From Nitrospirota bacterium (GTDB lineage Bacteria > Nitrospirota > Nitrospiria > SBBL01 > JAADHI01), in contig JAJDBV010000028.1 of NCBI GenBank assembly GCA_029261165.1, positions 1-64,000 of the forward strand: DNA of 64,000 bases, given 5' to 3'. The notes beneath the pieces were generated by a model. That model was not told where the DNA came from and did no database searches. It saw only the letters and a program-made list of their open reading frames with translations. Below, one piece after another: positions 3,038 to 19,361 of the stretch. Position 1 is the first letter of the stretch, and every line of letters begins with the position of its first letter. Position numbers and translations under genes: made by a program.

Positions 3038-4168
3038 TTGAATATTAAAACAAAAACCAAGGATGCTATTGTGAACAAGTCCTTAAAAACAGTAGATCAA
3101 AATCCAAAAAAAGGGAAAGTTGAATGTAACTTCGAAGAATTTCCTTATTTCATTCCTTCCACTAAAAACCTAAAAGAACAGAAAGAAATTATTTTCTCCA
3201 GAACGGTAACAAACTCTAAAGGTCATACGCTCAGCCAGGAATGGATTGTGCGTGCAGAACACGGGAACCACCTACCAGGAAGTTTTGAAGCAGATGTAAA
3301 ACGTGCATTAGACCAACTCGTCTTCGATATTGGGTTTGAAACTGTTTTACAAACCGGGTCAATAAAGTTTTCCCTCTATCAGATCGCAGATATCCTTGGA
3401 CTTGATCATGGCGGCTGGACCTGGAAAAGGATTCGGGAAGCCCTCGAAAGATTGAAAACGACAAATATCCACTCCAAGCATTCTTTTTATATTAAAGGCC
3501 GAGATACTTACATAGACGACATCTTTACCTTCCTGGAGCAAGTCCGGTTTTTAAAAGTTGTAGAGGGAAAGAGGACAAGGCATGCGACTTGTGAAGTCCG
3601 GTTTTCCAAGTACATTCTCGAAAGTTTAAAAAACCATTACATTAAACCCTTCGACTTCGGGTTTTATTGGTCTCTAAAAGATCCCATCCCAAAAAGACTG
3701 TATTCCCTTTTTGATAAAAGAGGCTACAGATCATCGAAACTCACCTTTGATCTCATCGAACTCGGGCGAACCATCCCACTGACACCACGACCACCTTCAA
3801 AAATTAAACAGGGGATTCTGCCCGGTCTTACCGTTTTAAAGAATCGGGGATATATTAAGGATTTTGCCTTCTTAAAATCGAAACCAATGAAAGATGTCTT
3901 GATGGTTTATTTGAAAAAGAAAGGCGAGGTCGATCCGGAAGTTAAAGAAATTGCGGATTCACTGTACGACGCCATGGTGAGACATCTGGGTGCGTCGGAA
4001 AGCTCTGAAAAACGTTTCCGGAAAATATCGGAAACGATCCCGCCTAATTTGGTTTATCGGGCTATCTCTGAAATTAAGGAAGAAGAAAGAGACGGGGAGG
4101 TTCGATCACCGAGGGGTTTGTTTTTTACGAAGATTGGGAGGTATTTGAAAGAAGCCTCCACCACTTAA
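3038..4168 (+). CDS. repA: Plasmid replication initiator protein (RepA-like)
   Basis: Winged-helix-like initiator sequence (FSLYQIADILGL...WTWKRIREALERLKTTNI); downstream of iterons. Confidence 0.7.
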   Translation: MNIKTKTKDAIVNKSLKTVDQNPKKGKVECNFEEFPYFIPSTKNLKEQKEIIFSRTVTNSKGHTLSQEWIVRAEHGNHLPGSFEADVKRALDQLVFDIGFETVLQTGSIKFSLYQIADILGLDHGGWTWKRIREALERLKTTNIHSKHSFYIKGRDTYIDDIFTFLEQVRFLKVVEGKRTRHATCEVRFSKYILESLKNHYIKPFDFGFYWSLKDPIPKRLYSLFDKRGYRSSKLTFDLIELGRTIPLTPRPPSKIKQGILPGLTVLKNRGYIKDFAFLKSKPMKDVLMVYLKKKGEVDPEVKEIADSLYDAMVRHLGASESSEKRFRKISETIPPNLVYRAISEIKEEERDGEVRSPRGLFFTKIGRYLKEASTT

Positions 4169-4530: not shown

Positions 4531-4562
4531 TTGCTAAAAAACAAAGAGAATAAGGAGAAAAT

Positions 4563-5333
4563 GTGAGTAACAATAATGCAACACGAAGGAAATATAAAAA
4601 GGATTTTCTAAAAGAAGTGATTGTTAGAATAGATTTTGATACTCCATTGCCTATAGCTATAAAGGGACCTGCGAAAAATATATACGATACAGTGAAAGAA
4701 CGATTTCCTATAACTGAAGAAAAAAAAGTTATGGGAAAAGAGCTTTTGATAGGGCCAGATGTGACAAAAGAACGTTCAATTGAATCGAAGGAATGGCACT
4801 ATTACGGGATAAATAGGGAGAAACACTTAACAATAACGCCTAATATGATGGTTATTGAATACAATAAATACAAATATTACGAAATGCTGCGGGAAGATTT
4901 CTTATCCGTTTCAGACGCTCTATTCAATGCTTACCCCAGATTACAGGTCAAGAGATTAGGGTTACGGTATATTGACAATATTGATATCCCCGGGGGAAAC
5001 CCTACGGAGTGGGATAAATATCTTAAGCCTGAATTAAACACTATATTTACTATCGCCGAAAACAAAGAAACAATATCAAGAGCTTTTCATGTTTTGGAGT
5101 TTAATTATGGAGAGGATTTTCTTAGGTTTCAATTTGGGATGTTTAACCCTGATTATCCGGCTCCAATAAAGAAAAAAATATACACGCTGGATTATGATAT
5201 GTATGTAACAAAATTATTGGACAAAACAGATATAGGGGAAACCCTAGATCATTTTCATGAAAAAGTTAATCGTTTTTTCGAGGAAATAATTACGGGTAAT
5301 TTACGAAAAATCATGGAGCCTTTAGATGGATAA
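4563..5333 (+). CDS. TIGR04255-family-like protein (GTG start)
   Basis: Resembles the sporadically distributed TIGR04255 family (LKEVIVRIDF, VKRLGLRYIDNIDIP). Confidence 0.6.
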   Translation: MSNNNATRRKYKKDFLKEVIVRIDFDTPLPIAIKGPAKNIYDTVKERFPITEEKKVMGKELLIGPDVTKERSIESKEWHYYGINREKHLTITPNMMVIEYNKYKYYEMLREDFLSVSDALFNAYPRLQVKRLGLRYIDNIDIPGGNPTEWDKYLKPELNTIFTIAENKETISRAFHVLEFNYGEDFLRFQFGMFNPDYPAPIKKKIYTLDYDMYVTKLLDKTDIGETLDHFHEKVNRFFEEIITGNLRKIMEPLDG

Positions 5334-5517
5334 AGAATCAGTATTTTCAGCTGAGTATGACATTAACAATACTACCGACTCCCAATCATCTATACAGGAG
5401 AAGAGTCCTGTGTCGAAAGATAAAGAAAAGAATGAAGTTTTAAATAAAATTGAATCGGATTATGACCTCTCCAAACCCAGACGTAAATTAATTCGTGCCA
5501 GGATTATCCGGAGATGA
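5326..5517 (+). CDS. Small hypothetical protein, translationally coupled
   Basis: Overlaps both neighbours; charged, basic C terminus. Confidence 0.5.
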   Translation: MDKESVFSAEYDINNTTDSQSSIQEKSPVSKDKEKNEVLNKIESDYDLSKPRRKLIRARIIRR

Positions 5518-6074
5518 AAAATGTAAGAATTCGGAAAAGAGCGCGAATATCCCAAGGAGATATTTATAAGGATGTTGAATTTATAGAGTATGCAATTGAA
5601 AAAGCGGGCGTGATTGAAATTTCAAAAATTATTTTCCCCTTTGTAGTTGTACTCACGCAAGATTGCGACCTAAATCAAGATTATACAGTTCGTTGGGCAA
5701 AGAACGGGGCTTCTAATCATGATAAAAAAATAATTTCAGTCATTGTTGCTCCTTTATACAATGTAGAATATGTTTATAGTGGCGAGCATCTATCTGAGTT
5801 AAATATGACTATGGCAGAAATTAAGAAAGAAAAAACACCAGGAAATACCCTAAGACAAAATAAAACCCCTCGGTATCATTATCTAGAATTTCCTCCTAGT
5901 GTGCCTATTGTTTCATCTGTATTAGATTTTAAACATTACTTTACAGTAAATGTGGAGTACTTAAAAAAACATAAAAAGGCAAATTTTATTTGTCAGATAG
6001 GGCCACTTTATAGGGAAGATGTGTCACAAAGATTTTCTAGTTATTTATCACGGATAGGTCTTCCAGAAAAATGA
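5514..6074 (+). CDS. Hypothetical protein with FPFVVVLTQDCDL motif, partner of TIGR04255-like protein
   Basis: ATGA overlap with upstream ORF; no recognised family. Confidence 0.6.
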   Translation: MKNVRIRKRARISQGDIYKDVEFIEYAIEKAGVIEISKIIFPFVVVLTQDCDLNQDYTVRWAKNGASNHDKKIISVIVAPLYNVEYVYSGEHLSELNMTMAEIKKEKTPGNTLRQNKTPRYHYLEFPPSVPIVSSVLDFKHYFTVNVEYLKKHKKANFICQIGPLYREDVSQRFSSYLSRIGLPEK

Positions 6075-6185: not shown

Positions 6186-9100
6186 ATGAATAGGAGCACC
6201 TTGATCCACAGCGCCCTTCAAGACTTTGCCGCTGCGGTAACGTCCAAGATGACGCAATTGACCGCCGGTGAGCCGGAAGACCAGGTGCGTGGGCCTTTCG
6301 AAAACTTCATTGGGGGCGTGGCTACCGCCTTAGGCTGGAACGTCGTCTGTACCGGCGAAACGCCCTTGCCCGGACGCCTCGGCCGTCCCGATTATGCCAT
6401 CCATCTCAACCAACTGCTCGCCGGATACGTCGAACTCAAGGCCCCCGGCGTGGGCGCGACCGCAAGCCGCTTCAAGGGCCACAATCGCGACCAGTTCAAA
6501 CGATTCTCGGCCATTCCTAATATCCTCTATACCGACGGAAACGAATGGGCGCTCTACCGCGGCGGTGAACTGGTGGACAAAGTCGTTCGTCTTTCGGGCG
6601 ACGTTGCCGCCGACGGCAAGAAGGTCGCCACACCCCAGAACGCCCACGCCGTCGAACGCCTCTTGCGCGTTTTCCTCTCATGGCAGCCCTTCATCCCAAC
6701 CGACCGCAAGGGCAAGATTGACCTCAAGGGCTTCGCCGACCTCATCGCCCCGCTTTGCCGGATGCTGCGCGAAGACGTAACCGACGCGCTCAAAGACCCG
6801 GCATCACCACTCGTCCAGCTCGCAAAAGACTGGCGGCAATTGCTCTTTCCCGACGCGCCGGACCAGCAATTCGCCGACGCCTACGCCCAAACCGTTGCCT
6901 TCGCCCTTCTTCTTGGGCGCAGCGAAGGGGCCGATCCGCTCACGCTTGACAGTGCCGAAGCCGCCCTCGCCGCCCAGCACAATCTTCTTTCCCGCGCCCT
7001 GCAAGTCCTAACCGACCCTAGCGCACGCGCTGAAATCGCCGCCTCGCTCGATCTGCTCCTGCGCGTCATTGCCGTGGTGCCCCCCGCCACGCTCACTGGC
7101 CCTGAAGACCCCTGGCTTTACTTTTACGAGGACTTCCTCGCCGCCTACGATCCAAAATTGCGCAAGGACGCCGGGGCCTACTATACTCCAGTCGAGGTCG
7201 TCCGCGCCCAGGTCCGCTTGATCGATGACCTGCTCGTTAACCGCCTGAACAAGCCGCTGGGGTTCGCCGACCCCGGCGTCGTCACGCTCGACCCCGCAGC
7301 CGGTACGGGCACCTATCTGCTCGGCGTCATCGAACACGCCCTAGGCCGTATCGAAGCCGAACAGGGGGCGGGCGCCGTCGCAGGGCAGGCCACCGCCTTG
7401 GCCAACAACCTCTACGGCTTCGAACTCATGGTCGGCCCCTATGCCGTGAGTGAACTCCGCGTCAGTCGCGCCCTGCTCGACCGTGGCGCGGCGCTGCCTA
7501 AAGACGGAACGCACGTTTATCTGACTGACACACTCGAAAGCCCCCACGCCAAACCACCTCAATTGCCACTGTTTCTCAAACCCATCGCCGAGCAGCACAC
7601 CAAGGCACTCAAGGTCAAAAGCAACGTCCCCGTCATCGTCTGCCTCGGTAATCCGCCCTACGACAGGCACGGTGCGGTGGATAGCGAAAACGAGCACAAC
7701 CTGTCTCGATATGGTGGATGGGTTCGTTTTGACGACCCTTTAGCAGATGATACGAAAAAAGACAAGAGAGGAAAGCAGAGGAAACTCAAAACGGCCCAAG
7801 CCAGGTTGGCGGAAAGACAGCGCCGCTCGATTCTCCGAAGTTTCATTGATCCCGCCACCGCCGCTGGGCACGGCGTCCACGTCAAGAACCTCTACAACCT
7901 CTACGTCTATTTCTGGCGCTGGTCGCTCTGGAAGGTCTTCGAGCATAAGACGGCCCACGGCCCGGGCGTCGTCAGTTTCATAAGCGCCTCAAGTTATCTC
8001 GACGGCGACGCCTTCTGCGGGATGCGCGAGCATATGCGCCGACAGTGTGATGAGGTCTGGATTCTCGACCTCGGAGGAGAGGGGCGTGGCACGCGCCAGA
8101 CCGACAACGTCTTCGCCATCCAGACACCCGTTGCCATCGCCGTGGCGGTCCGCACGAAGAAGGCGAAGAAGGACAAGCCCGCCGAGGTCCATTACGCACG
8201 GATCGAAGGATCGCGCAACGCCAAACTCGCCAAACTCGACGCCATCGCCGATCTCTCGAAAGTGAATTGGAGGATCTGCCACGGCGACTGGCAGGCTCCG
8301 TTCCGCCCGGAGGGCAAGGGCGGTTATTTCGGCTGGCCGCTCCTGACGGACCTAATGCCTTGGCAGCCAACAGGTGTAATGGCTGGAAGAACATGGGTGA
8401 TTGCGCCAACTCATGAGTACCTTCAAGAACGTTGGCGTCGCCTTATAAGTGTGTCGGCCAACGAGAGAGCCACGTTGTTCATCGAAAATGCGACTGGGAG
8501 AAAGATCACAGATAAGGCTCTTGCCTTACGCCCACCTCGTAACAGGCTGCCGGATATCCGATCTCTTCCCAAGAATGCACCCTCTCCAAGCATTGAACCT
8601 TTCGGATTCAGGTTTCTGGATAGGCAATTGATCGTGTCCGATGGGCGATTGATAGACCGCCCATGTCCTGACCTATGGGCCTGTATTTCAGCCAGCCAGA
8701 TATTCCTATCATCGCTTCTAAATCATCCTCTTGGTTCAGGACCGGCTCTGACTGCATTTGCAGATATTCCTGATAAGCACGCCTTTCGTGGTTCATACGG
8801 AGGGAAAAACGTCTTTCCTCTTTACCGCAATGCTGGCGCTTCGGAGGCCAACATCCTGCCCGGCCTGCTCGAATTTCTGTCCGTGACCTACTACAAGCGC
8901 AAGAAGGTGACGCAGGATGATTTTGTGGCCTACGTGTACGGCGTGCTGGCGCAGCCGGACTTTACGGCGCGTTTTCTCAAGGAACTAGAGACGCGCGAGC
9001 TTCGCGTGCCCATCACCAAGGATGCCGCACTGTTCGAGCAGGTCCGCGACGCAGGTGCGCGGCTGCTCTGGTTGCACACCTACGGCGAGCGCTTCGTTCC

Positions 9101-9581
9101 CAAGGGCAAGCAACGTGGCAATGTCCCGGTCGGCGCGGCGAAATGCATGAAGACCGTCCCTGGCCACGCCGACGGCTACCCCGAAGCATTCGAGTACAAC
9201 GACGCGACCCGAACGCTCCACGTGGGCGAGGGCGAGTTCGCGCCCGTCGCGCCGGAGGTCTTCGCCTTCGAGGTCTCGGGCCTCAAGGTCGTGCATTCGT
9301 GGCTCAAGTACCGCATGAAGAAAGGCGCGGGCAAGAAGTCGTCACCCCTCGACGATATCCGCCCCGAACGCTGGACCAGCCAGTTCACGACCGAACTGCT
9401 CGATCTCCTCAGGGTACTGGAAGCGACCATCGAGGGCTATCCCGAACAGGCGAAACTACTGGAAGCAGTCGTCGAGGGCGAATGCTTCCAAGCAGATGGA
9501 CTACCAGATGTTCCACACTGGATGCGCAAGCCACCGACCGACCGCGGAGGCGACCTGTTCGATGGGCTGGATGACAGCTAA
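6186..9581 (+). CDS. Single-polypeptide Type IIG-like restriction-modification enzyme (N6-adenine methylase plus PD-(D/E)xK-like N terminus)
   Basis: GRPDYAIHLNQLLAGYVELKAPG nuclease-like motif; LDPAAGTGTYLLGVIEHAL and GNPPYDR methylase motifs. Confidence 0.8.
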   Translation: MNRSTLIHSALQDFAAAVTSKMTQLTAGEPEDQVRGPFENFIGGVATALGWNVVCTGETPLPGRLGRPDYAIHLNQLLAGYVELKAPGVGATASRFKGHNRDQFKRFSAIPNILYTDGNEWALYRGGELVDKVVRLSGDVAADGKKVATPQNAHAVERLLRVFLSWQPFIPTDRKGKIDLKGFADLIAPLCRMLREDVTDALKDPASPLVQLAKDWRQLLFPDAPDQQFADAYAQTVAFALLLGRSEGADPLTLDSAEAALAAQHNLLSRALQVLTDPSARAEIAASLDLLLRVIAVVPPATLTGPEDPWLYFYEDFLAAYDPKLRKDAGAYYTPVEVVRAQVRLIDDLLVNRLNKPLGFADPGVVTLDPAAGTGTYLLGVIEHALGRIEAEQGAGAVAGQATALANNLYGFELMVGPYAVSELRVSRALLDRGAALPKDGTHVYLTDTLESPHAKPPQLPLFLKPIAEQHTKALKVKSNVPVIVCLGNPPYDRHGAVDSENEHNLSRYGGWVRFDDPLADDTKKDKRGKQRKLKTAQARLAERQRRSILRSFIDPATAAGHGVHVKNLYNLYVYFWRWSLWKVFEHKTAHGPGVVSFISASSYLDGDAFCGMREHMRRQCDEVWILDLGGEGRGTRQTDNVFAIQTPVAIAVAVRTKKAKKDKPAEVHYARIEGSRNAKLAKLDAIADLSKVNWRICHGDWQAPFRPEGKGGYFGWPLLTDLMPWQPTGVMAGRTWVIAPTHEYLQERWRRLISVSANERATLFIENATGRKITDKALALRPPRNRLPDIRSLPKNAPSPSIEPFGFRFLDRQLIVSDGRLIDRPCPDLWACISASQIFLSSLLNHPLGSGPALTAFADIPDKHAFRGSYGGKNVFPLYRNAGASEANILPGLLEFLSVTYYKRKKVTQDDFVAYVYGVLAQPDFTARFLKELETRELRVPITKDAALFEQVRDAGARLLWLHTYGERFVPKGKQRGNVPVGAAKCMKTVPGHADGYPEAFEYNDATRTLHVGEGEFAPVAPEVFAFEVSGLKVVHSWLKYRMKKGAGKKSSPLDDIRPERWTSQFTTELLDLLRVLEATIEGYPEQAKLLEAVVEGECFQADGLPDVPHWMRKPPTDRGGDLFDGLDDS

Positions 9582-9775: not shown

Positions 9776-10618
9776 ATGGTAATGAAAAAAATGGCAATGG
9801 AAAATTTATCTTCAGTGTTTATTGGTATAGTGGATATTTTAGGGCATAAAAAAGCCGAACAGCATATCGATCAATATGGTCCTCAAGCTGCTTCTGCCAA
9901 ACTTGGGGGAGTGTATAACACCTTGAATAAATATACGTTAGTTTACAATAATAATGATAATGGGGTTCGTTGGTTACAATATCTCGATGGTTACGTTTTC
10001 TATTCTGAAACAAACAATGTAGCGCACCTAGCTACAATGATCAAAGACGCGAGTAAACTAATCGCCCTATCCTTAATTGAATCAATACCGTTAAGAATTG
10101 CGATTACACAAGGTGATATTAAGATTATCAAATCAGATGAGGATGGTCTTTCAGTTACGGGTTCAGGGTGGACTGCGTTACAAAAATTAGAGAATTCCTT
10201 GGATTGGATGGGAGGCTGGTTGTATCTTCCCAGTTATGATAATCACCACCATCCAACGGTAACAAAGTTAATCAGTACGACACATCTCATTGTCCAGCAG
10301 AACTGTTGCTCGGAACCGACACAGAATTTTACAGCGCCGTTTAAAGGGAACAATACATATTCAGAAGAGAGAGCATGGTTCCTTAACTGGCATAAGGTTT
10401 TACATCAACAAAATCATGAAAACGAGAAGCTGATTAAGAATTGGTGGCTAAACTATACGCACGTTAATATTAATGGAAATCCAGATGTGCAACAAAAGCA
10501 AAAAAACACAATTGCGTTTGCACATTATTGCAACATTCTCTACCAGAGTGCCAACTTGATCTATCACTCCAAGGTAGTTCCTGATCTGAAAATAAGTGAA
10601 ATTAGTTCAAGTAATTAA
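9776..10618 (+). CDS. Hypothetical protein with nucleotidyl-cyclase-fold-like motifs
   Basis: FIGIVDILGHKKA, WLQYLDGYVFYSE and PLRIAITQGDI resemble the FVDILGF/FSDSI/RGAIS motif series of cyclase-like proteins. Confidence 0.45.
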   Translation: MVMKKMAMENLSSVFIGIVDILGHKKAEQHIDQYGPQAASAKLGGVYNTLNKYTLVYNNNDNGVRWLQYLDGYVFYSETNNVAHLATMIKDASKLIALSLIESIPLRIAITQGDIKIIKSDEDGLSVTGSGWTALQKLENSLDWMGGWLYLPSYDNHHHPTVTKLISTTHLIVQQNCCSEPTQNFTAPFKGNNTYSEERAWFLNWHKVLHQQNHENEKLIKNWWLNYTHVNINGNPDVQQKQKNTIAFAHYCNILYQSANLIYHSKVVPDLKISEISSSN

Positions 10619-11099: not shown

Positions 11100-14000
11100 A
11101 TGAGTAGTAAGTCGCCACAAGGGACAGTGAAGCAAACGAACAAGGTGTCCCGATCCTTGCGTCGCTCCTCTCTCATCCCAACCATTCTTCTAACATCGTT
11201 CATTACACTCCTCTTGATCATTACATCTTTTGCAACAGCACAAGCGGTGAGTCCTTCAAAGTTTGTTGTCCTGGGCGAAGAATCGGTTCGTATCAGAGAG
11301 GGGAGTTCCATCGCCAGTGGAGATATCGGTGCGAATCTCCCTAGTCCGGGACCACCTACAGGAGTAGGGCGGGTTGTCATCGACCGGGATGTGATCCTCC
11401 TTGACCCGACATCCCGTGTCATGGCCGATACTGTCGTGATAGATGGCGGGGCACAAGTCTATAACGTTCACTATAACGACCTGGTCTCCGATGGCGTGAT
11501 CTTAGGATCACAGATTACCCCGCTTTCCCTCCCACTGACAACCCTCCCGAGCATCCCTGTTTTTACAGAGGGCATCCCGGACATAGAAGTCCCCGATGAC
11601 AGCAGCCTCACGCTCGGAGCCGGAAGTTACGATTCCTTTACAGTCCGTTCGGGGGCGAGTGTCACCTTCACGGGTGGGATCTACAACTTTAAATCGTGGA
11701 ATATCCATAAAGGAGCAAGCCTCAGCTTCAATGCGCCAACCGAGATCCGAATCAAAGAGAAGCTTGAAGTAAAAGAAGGTGCCTCCATAGGGCCATCCCC
11801 AAGCAGTCCGGGCATCACGGGTGCCGATATCAAGATCATCATCACCGGGATCAACGGCCTTCTCGGGGGGGTTAATGAAATCCCTCAAGCCGCTTCCTTC
11901 GAGCGGATGGGATCTCTCCAGGCTAATGTCTATGTGCCCAACGGGACCTTGCTGATCGGGGACAGTTCGGTGATCACTGGGGCCTTCCTGGGTAAATGGG
12001 TTGATATCGGGAGATCCGTCTCACTGACCCATGAGGCGGCACGTTTTACCGGTCCAATGACCACCCCTCGTTCAGCCCACACTGCCACATTACTTCCTGA
12101 CGCTGGCATCCTGATCACCGGGGGTAAAAACGGGACCCTCCCTCTGGTCACCGCCGAACGCCTTGATCCGACGACCCTCACCTTTGGTCCGCTCACAGGC
12201 AACCTGGCAGCGGCACGCTCAGGTCACACTGCATCCGCTCTGGCCGATCAAACACACCTCCTCATTGCTGGAGAGAAAAGCGGGGGTACCCTGACCCTCT
12301 CAGAGCTCTTCCACCCGGGAACAGGCTTATTCTCTAACGTCATGGATACGCTTCGCATCCCCCGCGCCGGCCAGACTGCGACTGTTCTTTTGGATGGACG
12401 GGTCCTGATCATCGGAGGCCAGGAGACCGTCACGACCGATTCCTCAGAAGTCTTTGACGCCCAGAGCGTGATAATATTCAAACCCTCATTTGATCCGACT
12501 GAAGGGAGCTTCATCCTTTTGCCGAATCTCCTCTCCACACCACGTCGGAACCACACGGCGACACTCATGCCGGATGGAAGCGTCTTGATCATCGGAGGAG
12601 AGAACGACCTTGGATTGCTCGGCTCCGCCGAGCGCTTTGATCCAACAACAGAAACCTTTACGCCCTTAACGGCGTTAATGACCACCCCCAGAGCAGGCCA
12701 CACGGCAAACCTGCTGCCCGACGGACGTGTCCTGCTCTTAGGGGGAAGGGGGACAGCAGGCTTCCTGGACACTGCCGAGATATTTGATCCTGTTACCGGG
12801 ACCTTTTCCCCGACCACACCCGGTCTAATCATCCCGAGTGCCGAGCATACCGCGACACTCCTACCCTTTGGCGAGATCCTGATCACCGGAGGGGAGAACA
12901 GCACAGGCACGCTCTCCGCGACAAGCCTTTATGATCCCAAGTTGGTGGATACAACCCTACCCGCGGTAGCGGCACTCAGTCTCTCTGCCGGGGCAACCGA
13001 TGTTGATCTAACCGAAGTGATCGGGCTCCGATTCTCGGAGCCGGTGGATATCACAACACTGACGGGCGTCAACGTCTCTCTCTCAGGGGGTGGATCTCCA
13101 GCAAATGCCACCATAAGTGGCAGCGAAGAAGGCCTACTCGCCTTTATCGTCCCAACGACAAAACTAACTGCCGGGACTGTCTATACCTTGTCTCTTTCCC
13201 CGGCCATCACCGATACGTCAGGAAATTCCCTTGCACCGTTCTCTTCGACTTTCACGACCGTAAACGCCCCGGTCATCGCAACGGTCACGCCCGGTCATGG
13301 ACCGATCGGACAGGCCGTCACAATCACCGGCCAGAACTTTGACCCCTCGGCCCCGACATTGAATGTTGTTTCTTTTGAGGGGATCAATGCCTTGGTGACC
13401 TTGGCCACCGCAACGCTGCTGGAGGTCTCTGTCCCCTCCGGTGTCCCAACTGGGGTGGGAACGTTGACGGTAAAGACACGAGGCGGAACGGCGAGCATTC
13501 CTTTCACTATTGATAGCACGGCCCCCGTTCTGACCTCTCTTTCGCCGGTATCAGTCCCGGCGGGGAGTGCCGCCTTTACCCTGACACTTAACGGTAGTAA
13601 TTTCTTTGCAACCTCGACAGTTCAATTCGGGGCAACGACGCTTACATCAACCTTCATTAGTAACAGCCAGTTACAAGCCAGCATTCCGGCTTCGGCTATC
13701 GCATCTCCCGGAACAGTCCAGGTCACCGTGGTCAATCCGGCCCCGAACGGGGGGACCTCCAACGCGCTTGCTTTCGAAGTGATTGGCCCAGTCATTCAAA
13801 GCGTGACCCCCACAAGCGGTCCCGTCGGGACGCCGGTCACGATCACCGGACTGAACTTCGACCCAACCGCCTCTAATAATAATCTTTCCTTCAATGGTAC
13901 ATCAGCCATCATTACCTCGGCCACGACCACAGAGATCAAGACGACGGTCCCGTTAGGGGCGAGCACCGGTCCAATCTCACTCACCACACCAACCGGGACG

Positions 14001-17000
14001 GCAAGCGGCGGTACCTTTACGGTGGTCTTATCCGCAGACTTCTCAATAACGGCGTCTCCATTGTCCATTGATGTTGCCCCAGGAGGCCAAATTGCCATCC
14101 AGGTCCTCCTTTCTGGAGCGGGAGTTTCCCCTTATTCCGGCCTCGTCGGCTTGACCGTCGGGACCTTGCCCACGGGAGTCACCTCCTTTTTCTCGCCCTC
14201 AATCGGACAAACCGGCCAGGCATCGTTTCTCAACATCTTCACGCCCACAACCTTGGCGGCAGGTGCGTATCCGATAACAATACAAGCACAGGGCAATATC
14301 GACGGCCAGGCGATCACGCGTGTCGCAAATATCACCCTCAATGTCCTTCCTCCGGGAACAACCACCCTTTCGGGCCAGATACTGGCCTCCGAAACGGGCG
14401 ACCCTCTTGCAAATATTCTTGTGAAGACTGGCGGAACTACTGTCACGACCGATAGCGCGGGGAACTTTTTCTTTTCAAATATTTCGACAGGAACGCAGCT
14501 CCTGCTTATCGACGGCACCCCGGCGGGGACGGCTGTAGCTTCTTACCCGATTGATCTACCAGTCCAGGTAGATATCGTTGCAGGAACCAGTAATGTCCTT
14601 TCCTATCCAGTGTATCTGCATGAAGTGAATACAAAAAACTTCACCTTGCTGGATACAAGCCTGGGAGATGTGATTGTCTCCGATCCGGACATTCCTCTCT
14701 TTGAGCTCACCATTCCTCAGGGCACACAGATTATCGGGTGGGACGGGCTTCCGAATACAAAAATGTCGATTAAACGAGTTCCAATTGATCGGCTCCCACT
14801 CCCGCCGGTTTCTGGAGTCGCAACGACTAAAAGCGTCTACATGTTCCACTTTTTCAAAGCCGGGGGCGGGACGCCGACGGTCCCCATCCCCGTAAAATAC
14901 CCGAATGATGCTGGACTCGTACCCGGCACAAGTGTCGATCTTTATTATTATGATGAAGAACCCTTTGCCGATCCGACTTCACACCAGTGGAAAAAATTCG
15001 GGACGGGGACGGTTTCTTCCGATGCTCGCCAAATCGTGTCCGATCCCGGCGTCGGAATTCCAAAATTTTGCTGCGGCGGCGTCTTTGCAACCTGGGTAAT
15101 TGATGTCTTCAACGGTGACCCTACGCCCGACAATCCACCGAAAGGCGGCGATCCAGTTGATCTCTCTACAGGGACCTTCGGGCTCCAGAAAACGGACATG
15201 GTACTTCCGGGAATTTTCCCAACTCAATTGATCCGATATTATACCGCGCGAAACGAACCTCTGAATTCTCTCATACCGGGTCCCTTCGGTCCGGGAACAA
15301 ATCACAACTACAACCATCGACTAATTCCATTTGGAAACACAGATGAAGCCTTGCTCCTTCTCAAGGCTGATGATGGACGAGCGGTCTTTTCGATCAATCC
15401 GGATGGGACTTTCATAAACTTGACCACGCCATCGCTTAACGGGGTCGTCGTGAGTATTGGGGTGGGAGGTATTAGAACCCTCCGCTATAAAGACGGCAGG
15501 AAGTGGATTTTCTCCGACACGGGTTTCCTTATACGCGTTGAAGACCACATTGGGAATGGAGTGGATCTGATTCGCAACGATGGAATCTTAACAAAAATAG
15601 TCCAGCTGGGAGGCCGGGAAATCCTATTGGACTATGATAATTCATCACGCATTATAAGATTGACCGACCCCTTGGGGAGAGTGGTTCAATATACCTACGA
15701 TGGTACCGGGCTCTTAAATGCTGTAATCGATCCTGAGGGCGGGATAACCCGCTATACTTATGATGGAATAAAACGAATGACAACCATCACAGATGCCCGA
15801 GGGATACTCTTTTTGACCAATGAGTATGACAATAATGATCGGGTCATACGCCAGACCAATGCCGAAGGCGGTGTCTTTCAATTCTTCTATTTCGGGCCTG
15901 ATGGTCGTGCGCTACTTGATGTACCAGAAGTTATTTGGCTTCCGTTTAGAAACCCATTTTGCGGCCCCACAGAGGTGATTGATGCAGCAACGGCGATCCC
16001 ACCGGGAAGGCCCTGTGTCATTCGAAAAATTTGGCCCGGCCCAGCGGACAGTCTGGTTACACAGACCATTGTGATCGATCCGAAAGGAACCCCAAGCTCG
16101 TACCGCTTCACTACGGCGGGGTATCCAAGCGAAATCACAGACGCCTCAGGACGAACGACCCAATTTGAGCGGGCGAATGGAACGAATCAACTTATTTCTA
16201 CGACAGATCATTTGGATCGAAAGACAAGCTTTACCTATGATGCGTTTAATAACCTCCTGACCTCGACCGATCCCGAAGGCAATACAACCACCTTTACCTA
16301 TGAACCTAATTTTAATAAAGTTACGACCATTACGGATGCCCTGGCACAGGTGACGTCTTTTACCTACGATTTACAAGGAAATCTCCTGAGGACCACTGAT
16401 CCCTCCGGGGCGGTGACCACAATGACCTACAATGCCAAGGGTCAACCCATCACGGTTACCGATCCTCTAGCGAATATGACCCGCTTTAGTTACGATTCTT
16501 TTGGGGATCTCATCACGACCACAGACCCCCTCGGCAATATCACCTCCCGGGTTTACGATGCCGTCTCTCGACTTTTGGCGGTGACCGATCCGAGAGGAGA
16601 AAGCACCGGATTTATCTACGATAACCTCAATCGGGTCACCACAATAAACGATCCCGGAAACAATGCCACCCAGTTTACGTATGACCCTAATGGCAATCTC
16701 TTAACGGTTTCAGATGCGAATAACAATACAACGACTTATACCTATGACCTGCAAGACCGTCTGGACACAAGGACCGATCCATTATTAAGAAGTGAAACGT
16801 ACGCCTACGACCTCAACGGTAACCTGACAACCTTTACAGATCGGAAGGGACAGGTCACGATCTTTGCCTCCGATCCGCTTGATCGGAGAGTTAGAGCAGA
16901 CTATGCCGATGTGGCACAAACCGGGTTTGTCTACGATACAGCAGGCAGGCTGGATGAGATCATAGAAGGGACATCGACGATTAAATTTACCTACGACAAT

Positions 17001-18443
17001 CTGGATCGGCTGGCCTCGGAGCTCACGTCGCAAGGGGTGTTGTCCTATACCTATGATGCCCTGGGAAGAAGAACCTCCATGGCGGTGAATGGTGGTCTGC
17101 CTGTGAATTATCAGTACGATCTTAACTCCCGCCTGACACAGGTGGCACAGGGGTCACAGATTGTAGGTCTGGGATATGATGTTTCTGGAAGAAGAACCAG
17201 TCTGAGTTATCCAAACGGGACCAGTACGAGTTATGCCTATGACGCGGCCAGTCGAATCACTAATATTACCCATAAGGCAGGAGTAACCCCATTTGAGCGT
17301 TTGACCTATACCTATGATGCGGCGGGCAACCGGACAAGTCTGGATCGGACGAATGGCTCCGCCATCTTATTGCCAGATGCAGTTCAAGCTGCTTATGACG
17401 CTGCGAATGAACAGATCAGGCTTAATAGTACCACACCGAATTTGAATTATGATGCGAATGGAAATTTGCTTTCTCAGACCGATGCGAGCGGGACGACGAA
17501 CTATACTTGGGATGCGCGGAATCGACTGATGGGCATCACCGGGCCGACGACAACGGCCAGCTTTGTTTATGATGCCCTGGGGCGAAGGACGAGTAAAACC
17601 ATCAACGGCGTTAAGACCGATTATCAGTATGATGGGAATGACATTGTTTCTGAGATCGGCGGCGGGGCGGTTGGGGCAAGTTATATAAGATCTTTGAATA
17701 TTGATGAGCCGTTTGTGCGGCAGTCGAGTGGGAATGAATATTATCATGTGGATGCTTTGGGGAGTACGCTGGATCTGACAGATCAGAGTGGTGCTGTTGT
17801 AACGACCTATGAGTATGAAGCATTCGGGAAGACCACGATAAATGGGACCTCATTAAATCCGTTTCAGTATACGGGAAGAGAAAATGATGGTACGGGGCTG
17901 TACTATTATAGGGCTAGGTATCATAGTGGCTTGCTACAAAGATTTATTAGTCAAGATCTAATTTGGTTTGGCGATTTTAATCTTTATGCGTATGTAAAGA
18001 ATCAACCCATCAGATATTTTGATCCATTTGGGTTGGCATATTTTGCAAAGAGACCCTTAAATCCCCTTTTTCTTATGATCAACAGTCCACTGCTTGATTT
18101 GTTAAATCTAGAAGCAAGTCATGAGCAGCTAATATTTGAGGATGGAGAACTGCCTAGCAGTAAAGGACAGCCTAGCAATTTAGGATTTTTCCTGGATGGT
18201 GTGGGCGAAGATCCACATTTTGGGGAATATCAAGATAAATATAAAAAAGTAGGTCGTAAGTATGATGATGCTTTGATGCGTAAGGTTGTTAAAGAAGTAG
18301 AGCCAAAAACTTACTGTGTCGTAAGGAATAATTGTCAAGATTGGGCAGATAAAGTTCGCGAAAAATACAAAGAATTGGAGAATAAGAAAAACCGACGTCT
18401 TTGTTTAAATTTTGGCGGCCGCAAATCTAAGCTTTGTTCATGA
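11100..18443 (+). CDS. Giant exported RHS/YD-repeat protein with kelch-like and IPT/TIG repeats, RHS core and C-terminal tip domain
   Basis: N-terminal hydrophobic segment; repeated LLPDGRVLIxGG; YTYDxxGNL repeats; YYRARYHSGLLQRFISQD and RYFDPFG core; unique tip HEQLIFEDG...NNCQDWADKVREKY. Confidence 0.9.
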   Translation: MSSKSPQGTVKQTNKVSRSLRRSSLIPTILLTSFITLLLIITSFATAQAVSPSKFVVLGEESVRIREGSSIASGDIGANLPSPGPPTGVGRVVIDRDVILLDPTSRVMADTVVIDGGAQVYNVHYNDLVSDGVILGSQITPLSLPLTTLPSIPVFTEGIPDIEVPDDSSLTLGAGSYDSFTVRSGASVTFTGGIYNFKSWNIHKGASLSFNAPTEIRIKEKLEVKEGASIGPSPSSPGITGADIKIIITGINGLLGGVNEIPQAASFERMGSLQANVYVPNGTLLIGDSSVITGAFLGKWVDIGRSVSLTHEAARFTGPMTTPRSAHTATLLPDAGILITGGKNGTLPLVTAERLDPTTLTFGPLTGNLAAARSGHTASALADQTHLLIAGEKSGGTLTLSELFHPGTGLFSNVMDTLRIPRAGQTATVLLDGRVLIIGGQETVTTDSSEVFDAQSVIIFKPSFDPTEGSFILLPNLLSTPRRNHTATLMPDGSVLIIGGENDLGLLGSAERFDPTTETFTPLTALMTTPRAGHTANLLPDGRVLLLGGRGTAGFLDTAEIFDPVTGTFSPTTPGLIIPSAEHTATLLPFGEILITGGENSTGTLSATSLYDPKLVDTTLPAVAALSLSAGATDVDLTEVIGLRFSEPVDITTLTGVNVSLSGGGSPANATISGSEEGLLAFIVPTTKLTAGTVYTLSLSPAITDTSGNSLAPFSSTFTTVNAPVIATVTPGHGPIGQAVTITGQNFDPSAPTLNVVSFEGINALVTLATATLLEVSVPSGVPTGVGTLTVKTRGGTASIPFTIDSTAPVLTSLSPVSVPAGSAAFTLTLNGSNFFATSTVQFGATTLTSTFISNSQLQASIPASAIASPGTVQVTVVNPAPNGGTSNALAFEVIGPVIQSVTPTSGPVGTPVTITGLNFDPTASNNNLSFNGTSAIITSATTTEIKTTVPLGASTGPISLTTPTGTASGGTFTVVLSADFSITASPLSIDVAPGGQIAIQVLLSGAGVSPYSGLVGLTVGTLPTGVTSFFSPSIGQTGQASFLNIFTPTTLAAGAYPITIQAQGNIDGQAITRVANITLNVLPPGTTTLSGQILASETGDPLANILVKTGGTTVTTDSAGNFFFSNISTGTQLLLIDGTPAGTAVASYPIDLPVQVDIVAGTSNVLSYPVYLHEVNTKNFTLLDTSLGDVIVSDPDIPLFELTIPQGTQIIGWDGLPNTKMSIKRVPIDRLPLPPVSGVATTKSVYMFHFFKAGGGTPTVPIPVKYPNDAGLVPGTSVDLYYYDEEPFADPTSHQWKKFGTGTVSSDARQIVSDPGVGIPKFCCGGVFATWVIDVFNGDPTPDNPPKGGDPVDLSTGTFGLQKTDMVLPGIFPTQLIRYYTARNEPLNSLIPGPFGPGTNHNYNHRLIPFGNTDEALLLLKADDGRAVFSINPDGTFINLTTPSLNGVVVSIGVGGIRTLRYKDGRKWIFSDTGFLIRVEDHIGNGVDLIRNDGILTKIVQLGGREILLDYDNSSRIIRLTDPLGRVVQYTYDGTGLLNAVIDPEGGITRYTYDGIKRMTTITDARGILFLTNEYDNNDRVIRQTNAEGGVFQFFYFGPDGRALLDVPEVIWLPFRNPFCGPTEVIDAATAIPPGRPCVIRKIWPGPADSLVTQTIVIDPKGTPSSYRFTTAGYPSEITDASGRTTQFERANGTNQLISTTDHLDRKTSFTYDAFNNLLTSTDPEGNTTTFTYEPNFNKVTTITDALAQVTSFTYDLQGNLLRTTDPSGAVTTMTYNAKGQPITVTDPLANMTRFSYDSFGDLITTTDPLGNITSRVYDAVSRLLAVTDPRGESTGFIYDNLNRVTTINDPGNNATQFTYDPNGNLLTVSDANNNTTTYTYDLQDRLDTRTDPLLRSETYAYDLNGNLTTFTDRKGQVTIFASDPLDRRVRADYADVAQTGFVYDTAGRLDEIIEGTSTIKFTYDNLDRLASELTSQGVLSYTYDALGRRTSMAVNGGLPVNYQYDLNSRLTQVAQGSQIVGLGYDVSGRRTSLSYPNGTSTSYAYDAASRITNITHKAGVTPFERLTYTYDAAGNRTSLDRTNGSAILLPDAVQAAYDAANEQIRLNSTTPNLNYDANGNLLSQTDASGTTNYTWDARNRLMGITGPTTTASFVYDALGRRTSKTINGVKTDYQYDGNDIVSEIGGGAVGASYIRSLNIDEPFVRQSSGNEYYHVDALGSTLDLTDQSGAVVTTYEYEAFGKTTINGTSLNPFQYTGRENDGTGLYYYRARYHSGLLQRFISQDLIWFGDFNLYAYVKNQPIRYFDPFGLAYFAKRPLNPLFLMINSPLLDLLNLEASHEQLIFEDGELPSSKGQPSNLGFFLDGVGEDPHFGEYQDKYKKVGRKYDDALMRKVVKEVEPKTYCVVRNNCQDWADKVREKYKELENKKNRRLCLNFGGRKSKLCS

Positions 18444-18473: not shown

Positions 18474-19361
18474 ATGAGAATGTTTTTTTTGTGCCTATTT
18501 TTTTTGGACTCAGTATTTTCGAATAAAGTGGCGCACGCAAGTGACTTGTCTGGGAAGTTAATCTACGCGAATGGGACTAATATTATAAGATCGCTTGATC
18601 TATCAACATTGAAGCATGAAATTTTACATAAAGAGCCTTTTGGGATATTCATCAACAATCTAAGCAAGATAACAGAAACAAGATTTATCTATCAAGATTG
18701 CGATGGTACTAGGAAACCAGGTTGCCTGTTGCAGGAATTTGATATTGAGAACAAGTCTGTTAAAACATGGCGTTCGGGTCATATACCTACTTACGTTAAG
18801 GAAAGCAATAGTATATTTTTTTATGAAAGTGCTCCTGATACAGGGGAGGAATGGTTATTTGTCGTAAATTTAGAAGCAATCGGGAATGCGAAAAAAGTGA
18901 TGAGAGCTCCCTCTACACATAAAACCCAGAATGGGATACCATATTCCTATAAGGGACCCGTTGTTCAAATTTCACCTGACCAAGTGATATTTGTCGGTGA
19001 AGATGATGGGATATGGATATATCAGATTTCGAATTCAAAGCTGATATCGACAGATATTAAAAACATCCGTCCTATATTTTGGCTGGACAAAACAAAGGAA
19101 CTTATTGGTTATAACTGGGAATCAAAAGGAATTGTCCGGTATGATTTAAAGTCGAAGAGAATAGAGCAATTACCCCAATTTAAAGCGAGTTCTGGGTTTG
19201 TCTATATCCCGAATTATGACACAGTAATCTCCTGGGAGGGTCGGTTGCATTTTTTTATATCTGAACGATTTGATATTTTTTCATACCATCTTGGCAGTGG
19301 AGAAAGAATGAAAATTGTTCCTAACCATCACATAAGTAGTGGAATCTGGTTCCAGAAGTGA
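18474..19361 (+). CDS. Exported beta-propeller-like hypothetical protein, candidate immunity or accessory protein
   Basis: Signal peptide-like N terminus; 30 bp downstream of the RHS tip. Confidence 0.5.
   Translation: MRMFFLCLFFLDSVFSNKVAHASDLSGKLIYANGTNIIRSLDLSTLKHEILHKEPFGIFINNLSKITETRFIYQDCDGTRKPGCLLQEFDIENKSVKTWRSGHIPTYVKESNSIFFYESAPDTGEEWLFVVNLEAIGNAKKVMRAPSTHKTQNGIPYSYKGPVVQISPDQVIFVGEDDGIWIYQISNSKLISTDIKNIRPIFWLDKTKELIGYNWESKGIVRYDLKSKRIEQLPQFKASSGFVYIPNYDTVISWEGRLHFFISERFDIFSYHLGSGERMKIVPNHHISSGIWFQK

What the first reader, a model, noticed from the sequence alone, without database searches (positions are those of the whole stretch)
4563..6074. Translationally coupled three-gene operon with a TIGR04255-like protein
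ORFs of 256, 63 and 186 aa overlap by 8 and 4 bp, so stoichiometric expression is likely. TIGR04255 is a sporadically distributed family of unknown role. The third protein carries a distinctive VVVLTQDCDLNQDY motif, and the operon sits next to an R-M gene in a cargo region. This is a reasonable candidate for an uncharacterised defence or toxin system.
Basis: partly seen in the sequence, partly recalled or inferred. Interest (0 to 1): 0.72.

Follow-up and report, generated by a model that had tools for sequence, protein, structure and literature searches.

The report
Three-gene toxin module with swappable toxins
The three overlapping genes form a compact, horizontally moving toxin-antitoxin-like unit: a common first protein of unknown role (TIGR04255), a small two-part linker that looks like an antitoxin, and a toxin-fold protein that relatives exchange for quite different toxins, which suggests what a widespread 'unknown' protein family is for.

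Summary
In detail: ORFs of 256, 63 and 186 aa overlap by 8 and 4 bp, and the first is TIGR04255. The module recurs across bacteria, archaea and CPR: 70 of 74 testable relatives of the third gene have TIGR04255 just upstream, usually with a ~60-aa ORF between. AlphaFold2 gives the third protein ('C') a confident MazF/CcdB toxin fold (Z 10.7) that no sequence profile detects. Other TIGR04255 loci are also three-gene operons, with HEPN, PIN, zeta or canonical MazF toxins third. In two sets of close relatives the toxin is replaced while TIGR04255 (68-74% identical) and, mostly, the first part of the middle protein are kept. Where the third gene is canonical MazF, the middle protein ends in an ordinary MazF-antitoxin tail (E 7e-12, 1e-10). 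Best reading: a three-component toxin-antitoxin module; the middle protein joins a TIGR04255-binding part to a toxin-neutralising tail, and TIGR04255 stabilises it or senses a trigger. Toxicity, neutralisation, trigger and phage defence are untested.

The parts
4552..4557 (+). AAGGAG, likely ribosome-binding site of the first gene
   Evidence: read in the sequence
4563..5333 (+). T: TIGR04255 family protein, 256 aa; predicted duplicated alpha+beta fold; proposed shared stabiliser/sensor of the module
   Evidence: NCBIfam TIGR04255 E 2.2e-36, 125.9 bits; AF2 pLDDT 94.4; weak fold matches, Z <= 8.2
5326..5517 (+). M: 63-aa low-complexity protein with conserved N-terminal tyrosine region and C-terminal KPRRKLIRARI tail; proposed two-part antitoxin/linker
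   Evidence: homologue in the same place in 65 of 73 loci with T and C; alignment A8; role inferred
5514..6074 (+). C: 186-aa TQDCDL protein with MazF/CcdB toxin fold; proposed toxin
   Evidence: AF2 pLDDT 94.4; Foldseek prob 1.00 to MazF; VIA-align Z 10.7, 111 of 112 MazF-mt3 residues, rmsd 2.9; invariant Q49 C51 D52 L53 D138 F139 R180 P184 in 71 sequences

Best explanation
It is a three-component toxin-antitoxin-type module on a plasmid. C (186 aa) is a toxin of the MazF/CcdB fold, of a sequence family not described in Pfam or NCBIfam. M (63 aa) is its antitoxin: its C-terminal tail (KPRRKLIRARI) would bind and block C, and its N-terminal part would bind T. T (TIGR04255) is the constant component of the platform: it would hold or protect M, and its loss or diversion by a trigger would expose M to proteolysis and free C, much as the SecB-like chaperone does in TAC/CmdTAC systems. 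Related modules keep T and the first part of M and exchange the toxin together with the M tail that fits it (C, canonical MazF, PIN, HEPN, zeta). Shown here by computation: the conserved three-gene operon, the predicted fold of C, the toxins at the third position, the exchange events, and the MazF-antitoxin tails. Inferred: that C is toxic, that M neutralises it, that T binds M, and the triggering step. Whether the benefit to the carrier is plasmid stabilisation or phage defence is open.
For: (1) Conserved module: a genome scan found 255 relatives of C; of 74 kept loci with at least 1 kb upstream, 70 have T within 450 bp on the same strand, and 65 of 73 have an M ORF, 52 of them overlapping T's stop. 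(2) Fold: all 50 rows of the structural comparison are MazF/Kid/CcdB toxins, Z 10.7-8.2. (3) Toxin slot: among loci found with the T family model, third genes hit Pfam HEPN (7), PemK/MazF (2), PIN (2) and Zeta_toxin (1); 25 of 89 carry the C superfamily (profile links Prob 90-94). (4) Exchange: L193 carries canonical MazF and L191/L195/L200 carry C, while T is 69-74% identical and the N-terminal part of M still aligns (E 1e-11 to 1e-22); L015 carries PIN and L006/L017 carry C with T 68% identical, M aligning N-terminally with L006 (30%, E 8e-7) but not significantly with L017; the third genes show no similarity. (5) M tails: the last 41 aa of L156 M are 54% identical to the end of an ordinary MazF antitoxin in L140 (7e-12), and the last 31 aa of L193 M are 65% identical to that of L143 (1e-10). 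(6) Toxin type follows the T tree: 20 changes against at least 53 in shuffles and a floor of 12. (7) Modules are intact in Gracilibacteria-type contigs only when TGA is read as Gly.
Against: No toxicity, binding or phage data. C has no sequence-level match to MazF, and the position of MazF's catalytic Arg appears to be F/I in C (my hand alignment), so the activity may differ or be lost. The tail of the window's own M is not similar to a known antitoxin tail; its role is by analogy with other modules. M clusters are not all related to one another. In one Methanosarcina-phylum clade T seems to stand alone (L181-L190). The largest third-gene class (20 loci, X12) has no known fold. L017 versus L015 gives no significant M match.
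Confidence: 0.7

Rival explanations
1. The same three parts act as a dedicated anti-phage abortive-infection system: T is a phage sensor that binds a virus component and releases C, with no role in plasmid maintenance.
For: Some neighbours are MADS genes, SNF2/DpdE/ZorD-like helicases, type I R-M and, in Methylocystis, an abortive infection family protein; the window module sits beside a type IIG R-M gene; CmdTAC works in this way (PMC11618068).
Against: Neighbours are heterogeneous and many are ordinary genes; enrichment was not measured; the window module lies beside parAB/repA, where addiction modules are common; no phage data.
Confidence: 0.35
2. A pure plasmid-addiction module: labile M keeps C in check and plasmid loss frees C; T only tunes this.
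For: Plasmid setting with parA, parB, repA; also on a Methylocystis plasmid; overlapping gene layout typical of toxin-antitoxin operons.
Against: Several relatives lie on long contigs that look chromosomal (for example L037, 646 kb; L074, 947 kb); simple addiction modules do not need a conserved 256-aa third protein.
Confidence: 0.25
3. C is not a toxin. The MazF-like fold has been taken over for binding, and T-M-C is a stable regulatory or enzymatic complex.
For: C lacks sequence similarity to MazF and apparently its catalytic Arg; it has its own invariant polar set Q49/C51/D52/D138/R180.
Against: C sits in a slot that canonical MazF, PIN, HEPN and zeta toxins occupy in sister modules; sporadic, mobile distribution.
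Confidence: 0.15
4. T merely hitch-hikes beside an ordinary two-gene M-C toxin-antitoxin pair.
For: One locus keeps an M tail and C without detectable T (L044).
Against: 70 of 74 C loci have T directly upstream; T heads operons with unrelated toxins; N-terminal parts of M are shared between modules with different toxins.
Confidence: 0.06

Closest known systems
Toxin-antitoxin-chaperone (TAC) modules, including CmdTAC
   Same: Three genes; a third protein beyond toxin and antitoxin; an antitoxin with a dedicated segment for that protein that can be moved between unrelated toxin-antitoxin families (PMC5105189); trigger by diverting the third protein (PMC11618068).
   Different: The third protein is TIGR04255, not seen to match SecB; it is the first gene; the shared segment of the antitoxin appears N-terminal, not C-terminal (ChAD); toxins are MazF-fold, PIN, HEPN or zeta rather than HigB/HicA/MqsR.
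MazEF / PemIK and CcdAB (type II toxin-antitoxin)
   Same: C shares the MazF/CcdB fold; antitoxin gene directly upstream with overlap; some sister modules carry canonical MazF with canonical antitoxin tails.
   Different: C is not detected by PF02452; M has no recognisable DNA-binding domain; a conserved 256-aa protein precedes the pair.
PanAT / NetFlax hyperpromiscuous antitoxins
   Same: One protein family associated with many unrelated toxins (PMC8832971, PMC10440598).
   Different: Panacea is itself the antitoxin in mostly two-gene modules; here the constant protein is a separate gene and the neutralising tail seems to be on M. NetFlax states that it only addresses two-gene systems.

Membership tests
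TIGR04255 (NCBIfam, subfamily model) | score above the curated cut-off of 30 bits over the full length | tested here: met
   125.9 bits, residues 10-251 matched to 1-251 of 252
MazF/CcdB fold superfamily | shared three-dimensional fold over most of the toxin | tested here: met
   pLDDT 94.4 model; MazF-mt3 Z 10.7, rmsd 2.9, 111/112 residues; CcdB Z 9.9; predicted structure only
PF02452 PemK/MazF family | sequence match above the Pfam gathering score | tested here: not met
   no PF02452 hit for C; profile-profile comparison with MazF homologues Prob 0.7
PF02452 PemK/MazF family | catalytic Arg of the RP motif and Ser/Thr of the next strand | tested here: inconclusive
Type II toxin-antitoxin | antitoxin and toxin genes in one overlapping operon | tested here: met
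   4-bp overlap M/C here; conserved in relatives
Type II toxin-antitoxin | toxin inhibits growth and antitoxin neutralises it | not testable with these tools
   needs expression assays
Type II toxin-antitoxin | antitoxin with DNA-binding domain for autoregulation | tested here: inconclusive
   M has no Pfam, NCBIfam, PADLOC or PHROG hit; some other T modules have an HTH in M
TAC (toxin-antitoxin-chaperone) | SecB-like chaperone gene in the operon | tested here: inconclusive
   T gave no Pfam hit; fold matches were AdoMetDC, guanidino kinase and TBP-like at Z <= 8.2, which does not exclude others
TAC (toxin-antitoxin-chaperone) | HigBA, HicAB or MqsRA toxin-antitoxin pair | tested here: not met
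   M and C match no such family; C has a MazF/CcdB fold
CBASS HORMA proteins | significant HORMA match | tested here: not met
   E 0.07, 23 residues, 13.4 bits against a cut-off of 27.3; the fold matches MazF instead
PanAT (DUF4065 antitoxins) | Panacea/DUF4065 domain | tested here: not met
   no such Pfam hit for T or M

The most novel reading that the evidence does not exclude
TIGR04255 is the constant core of a previously unrecognised three-component platform in bacteria and archaea: one sensor/stabiliser protein, an antitoxin with a platform-binding half and a toxin-specific half, and an interchangeable toxin (MazF-fold, PIN, HEPN, zeta and several unknown families), working in phage defence or replicon maintenance.
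Probability: 0.55. Interest if true: 0.85.

Novelty: new variant of a known kind. Interest (0 to 1): 0.72.

Why it matters
TIGR04255 occurs in 54 of 290, 30 of 398 and 42 of 294 genomes sampled from three phyla, and no paper in the searched open library names it. Tying it to exchangeable toxins gives this orphan family a testable role, adds an unrecognised MazF-fold toxin family, and points to a class that two-gene toxin-antitoxin surveys such as NetFlax state they cannot see. The natural exchanges suggest a clean experiment: which half of M confers dependence on T and which fits the toxin.

Tried and rejected
HORMA/CBASS: the weak HORMA hits to C cover about 23 residues below cut-off; rejected. 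Sequence link between C and MazF: no Pfam hit, and hhalign against MazF homologues gave Prob 0.7, so the relation is claimed at fold level only. Viral scan with C: 12 pattern matches, none a relative; phages held only a marginal match. PDB sequence searches with C and T profiles: nothing usable. A fourth conserved gene: neighbour clustering gave only small, unrelated groups. Fusion of M and C in L054: M turned out to be a separate ORF and C has an extra N-terminal domain. Search for the PIN-type M tail of L026 in plasmids: none; the L193 tail matched a MazE-annotated protein at E 0.4 only. For T, TBP, AdoMetDC and guanidino-kinase folds are tied, so no fold was assigned; SecB was not among the rows shown, which does not exclude it. 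A wrong set of coordinates was corrected.

Full report
What is there. The three ORFs are exactly as described. T, 4563-5333, is TIGR04255 (125.9 bits, cut-off 30). M, 5326-5517, is 63 aa without any family match. C, 5514-6074, holds VVVLTQDCDL and has no Pfam, NCBIfam or PHROG family. The module follows parA (629-1657), parB (1647-2609) and repA (3038-4168, PF10134), and precedes a type IIG R-M gene (6186-9581) on a 68,348-base contig whose ends do not overlap exactly. Its GC (34%) differs from the backbone (43%) and the R-M gene (60%), and the DNA flanking it is not clearly shared with the nearest relative L036: the three genes travel together. All three are under purifying selection (dN/dS 0.06, 0.22, 0.08 against L036; dS is saturated).

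It recurs. A Methylocystis plasmid holds the same order, with C 53% identical. A scan of genomes found 255 relatives of C and kept 80, from Proteobacteria, Deltaproteobacteria, Bacteroidetes, Chloroflexi, Patescibacteria, methanogens, Methanoperedens and others. Of 74 loci with at least 1 kb upstream, 70 have T within 450 bp on the same strand; 65 of 73 loci with both have an M ORF (median 63 aa), 52 overlapping T's stop. Of the four exceptions, L112 and L115 have T a little further upstream, L044 keeps C and an M tail, and L110 has an upstream protein that looks to me like a divergent T. In two Gracilibacteria-type contigs the genes seem broken under table 11 and are intact when TGA is read as Gly. 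M keeps an N-terminal tyrosine and a tail YGxxKPRRxxIRAxI, with a variable, low-complexity middle. The T tree groups sequences from different phyla, which fits horizontal transfer.

C has a toxin fold. From 71 sequences AlphaFold2 gave a confident model (pLDDT 94.4). Foldseek's best matches are MazF (prob 1.00), and all 50 rows of the second comparison are MazF, Kid or CcdB toxins (MazF-mt3 5hkc: Z 10.7, 111 of 112 residues, rmsd 2.9; CcdB Z 9.9). Sequence profiles do not see this. Invariant residues are Q49, C51, D52, L53, D138, F139, R180 and P184. By strand order (my hand alignment, not computed), P42 matches the P of MazF's RP motif, its catalytic Arg is F/I here, S75 matches the MazF Ser/Thr, and D138 lies near the MazF DQ motif; so RNase activity is possible but not established, and a CcdB-like action is not excluded. 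T also gave a confident model (pLDDT 94.4), a duplicated beta-alpha-beta arrangement with weak, tied matches to AdoMetDC, guanidino kinases and TBP (Z at most 8.2).

T heads modules with other toxins. TIGR04255 occurs in 54 of 290 genomes of the window's phylum, 30 of 398 and 42 of 294 in two other phyla, and in none of 14 control genomes. Of 94 T loci examined, 76 are tight three-gene operons. In 89 not reached through C, the third gene belongs to the C superfamily in 25 (TQDCDL, SQSCDI and NTCDM groups, linked by profiles at Prob 90-94), to a HEPN cluster in 12 (Pfam HEPN at E 0.01 or better in 7), PIN in 2, canonical MazF in 2, zeta toxin in 1, DUF7689 in 2, and an unknown family 'X12' in 20; 9 near-identical loci of one clade appear solitary. 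These Pfam toxins are the strongest sign of what the third slot is. Toxin type mostly follows the T tree (20 changes; shuffles 53 or more; floor 12), with a few exchanges.

Exchange events and the two-part M. L193 has canonical MazF; L191, L195 and L200 have C. Their T proteins are 69-74% identical and the N-terminal parts of M align (E 1e-11, 1e-22, 3e-16), but the third proteins show no significant similarity. L015 has PIN where L006 and L017 have C; T is 68% identical. M of L015 aligns over its first 77 residues with L006 (30%, E 8e-7) but has no significant match with L017. The HTH-type M of the zeta module L034 aligns with those of C-superfamily modules L004 and L020 (E 2e-7, 6e-7). Where the toxin is canonical MazF, the end of M is an ordinary MazF-antitoxin tail: L156 M residues 55-95 are 54% identical to the antitoxin upstream of MazF in L140 (7e-12), and L193 M residues 101-131 are 65% identical to that in L143 (1e-10), while their N-terminal parts are not shared with those antitoxins. 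The simplest reading is that M joins a part that belongs to T with a part that belongs to the toxin.

Mechanism proposed. C is the toxin, M the antitoxin, and T the constant partner of M. Losing or diverting T would expose M to proteolysis and free C. This is modelled on TAC systems, in which the antitoxin carries a chaperone-dependence segment that can be grafted between families (PMC5105189), and on CmdTAC, in which a phage capsid protein takes the chaperone and the antitoxin is degraded by ClpP (PMC11618068). Differences: T gave no SecB match, it is the first gene, and the shared segment of the antitoxin is N-terminal. Shown: operon, predicted fold, third-slot toxins, exchanges, tails. Inferred: toxicity, neutralisation, T-M binding, trigger, benefit.

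Defence or addiction. Neighbours include MADS genes, SNF2-type helicases, type I R-M and, in Methylocystis, an abortive infection family protein, but also many ordinary genes and recombinases. I could not measure enrichment. The position next to parAB/repA suits an addiction role equally well.

Novelty. No paper in the searched library names TIGR04255, PADLOC has no significant match for T, M or C, and NetFlax says that it covers two-gene systems only. Supplementary tables and papers outside the library were not searched, so an earlier mention cannot be excluded. I rate it a new variant of a known kind: a tripartite toxin-antitoxin with an unrelated third component and exchangeable toxins.

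Noticed in passing
L098:4900-6600 and L099:4950-6560: The same module in Gracilibacteria-type contigs is intact only if TGA is read as glycine (open frames of 252/238 codons for T and 192/190 for C).
   Followed up: yes
L012, L014, L016, L018, L019, L021, L023, L025, L027, L031, L032, L035 and others: The commonest TIGR04255 module (20 of 89 loci) has a ~165-aa second protein (GWDGYDA motif) and a ~130-aa third protein (GRADI...HANI motif), both without Pfam hits where tested: possibly another unknown toxin/antitoxin pair.
   Followed up: partly
L181-L190: In one clade of the Methanosarcina phylum TIGR04255 seems to stand alone next to housekeeping genes.
   Followed up: partly
L054:5702-6537: C carries an extra N-terminal domain of about 100 residues, with M still a separate ORF before it.
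   Followed up: partly
L011:2681-3121 and L028: DUF7689 protein in the third slot of TIGR04255 modules; by position a candidate toxin family.
   Followed up: no
window 11100-18443: 2447-aa RHS/YD-repeat-like protein with a distinct C-terminal end, followed by a 295-aa ORF at 18474-19361.
   Followed up: no
window 9776-10618: 280-aa ORF of low GC (37%) without Pfam or NCBIfam family, right after the R-M gene.
   Followed up: no
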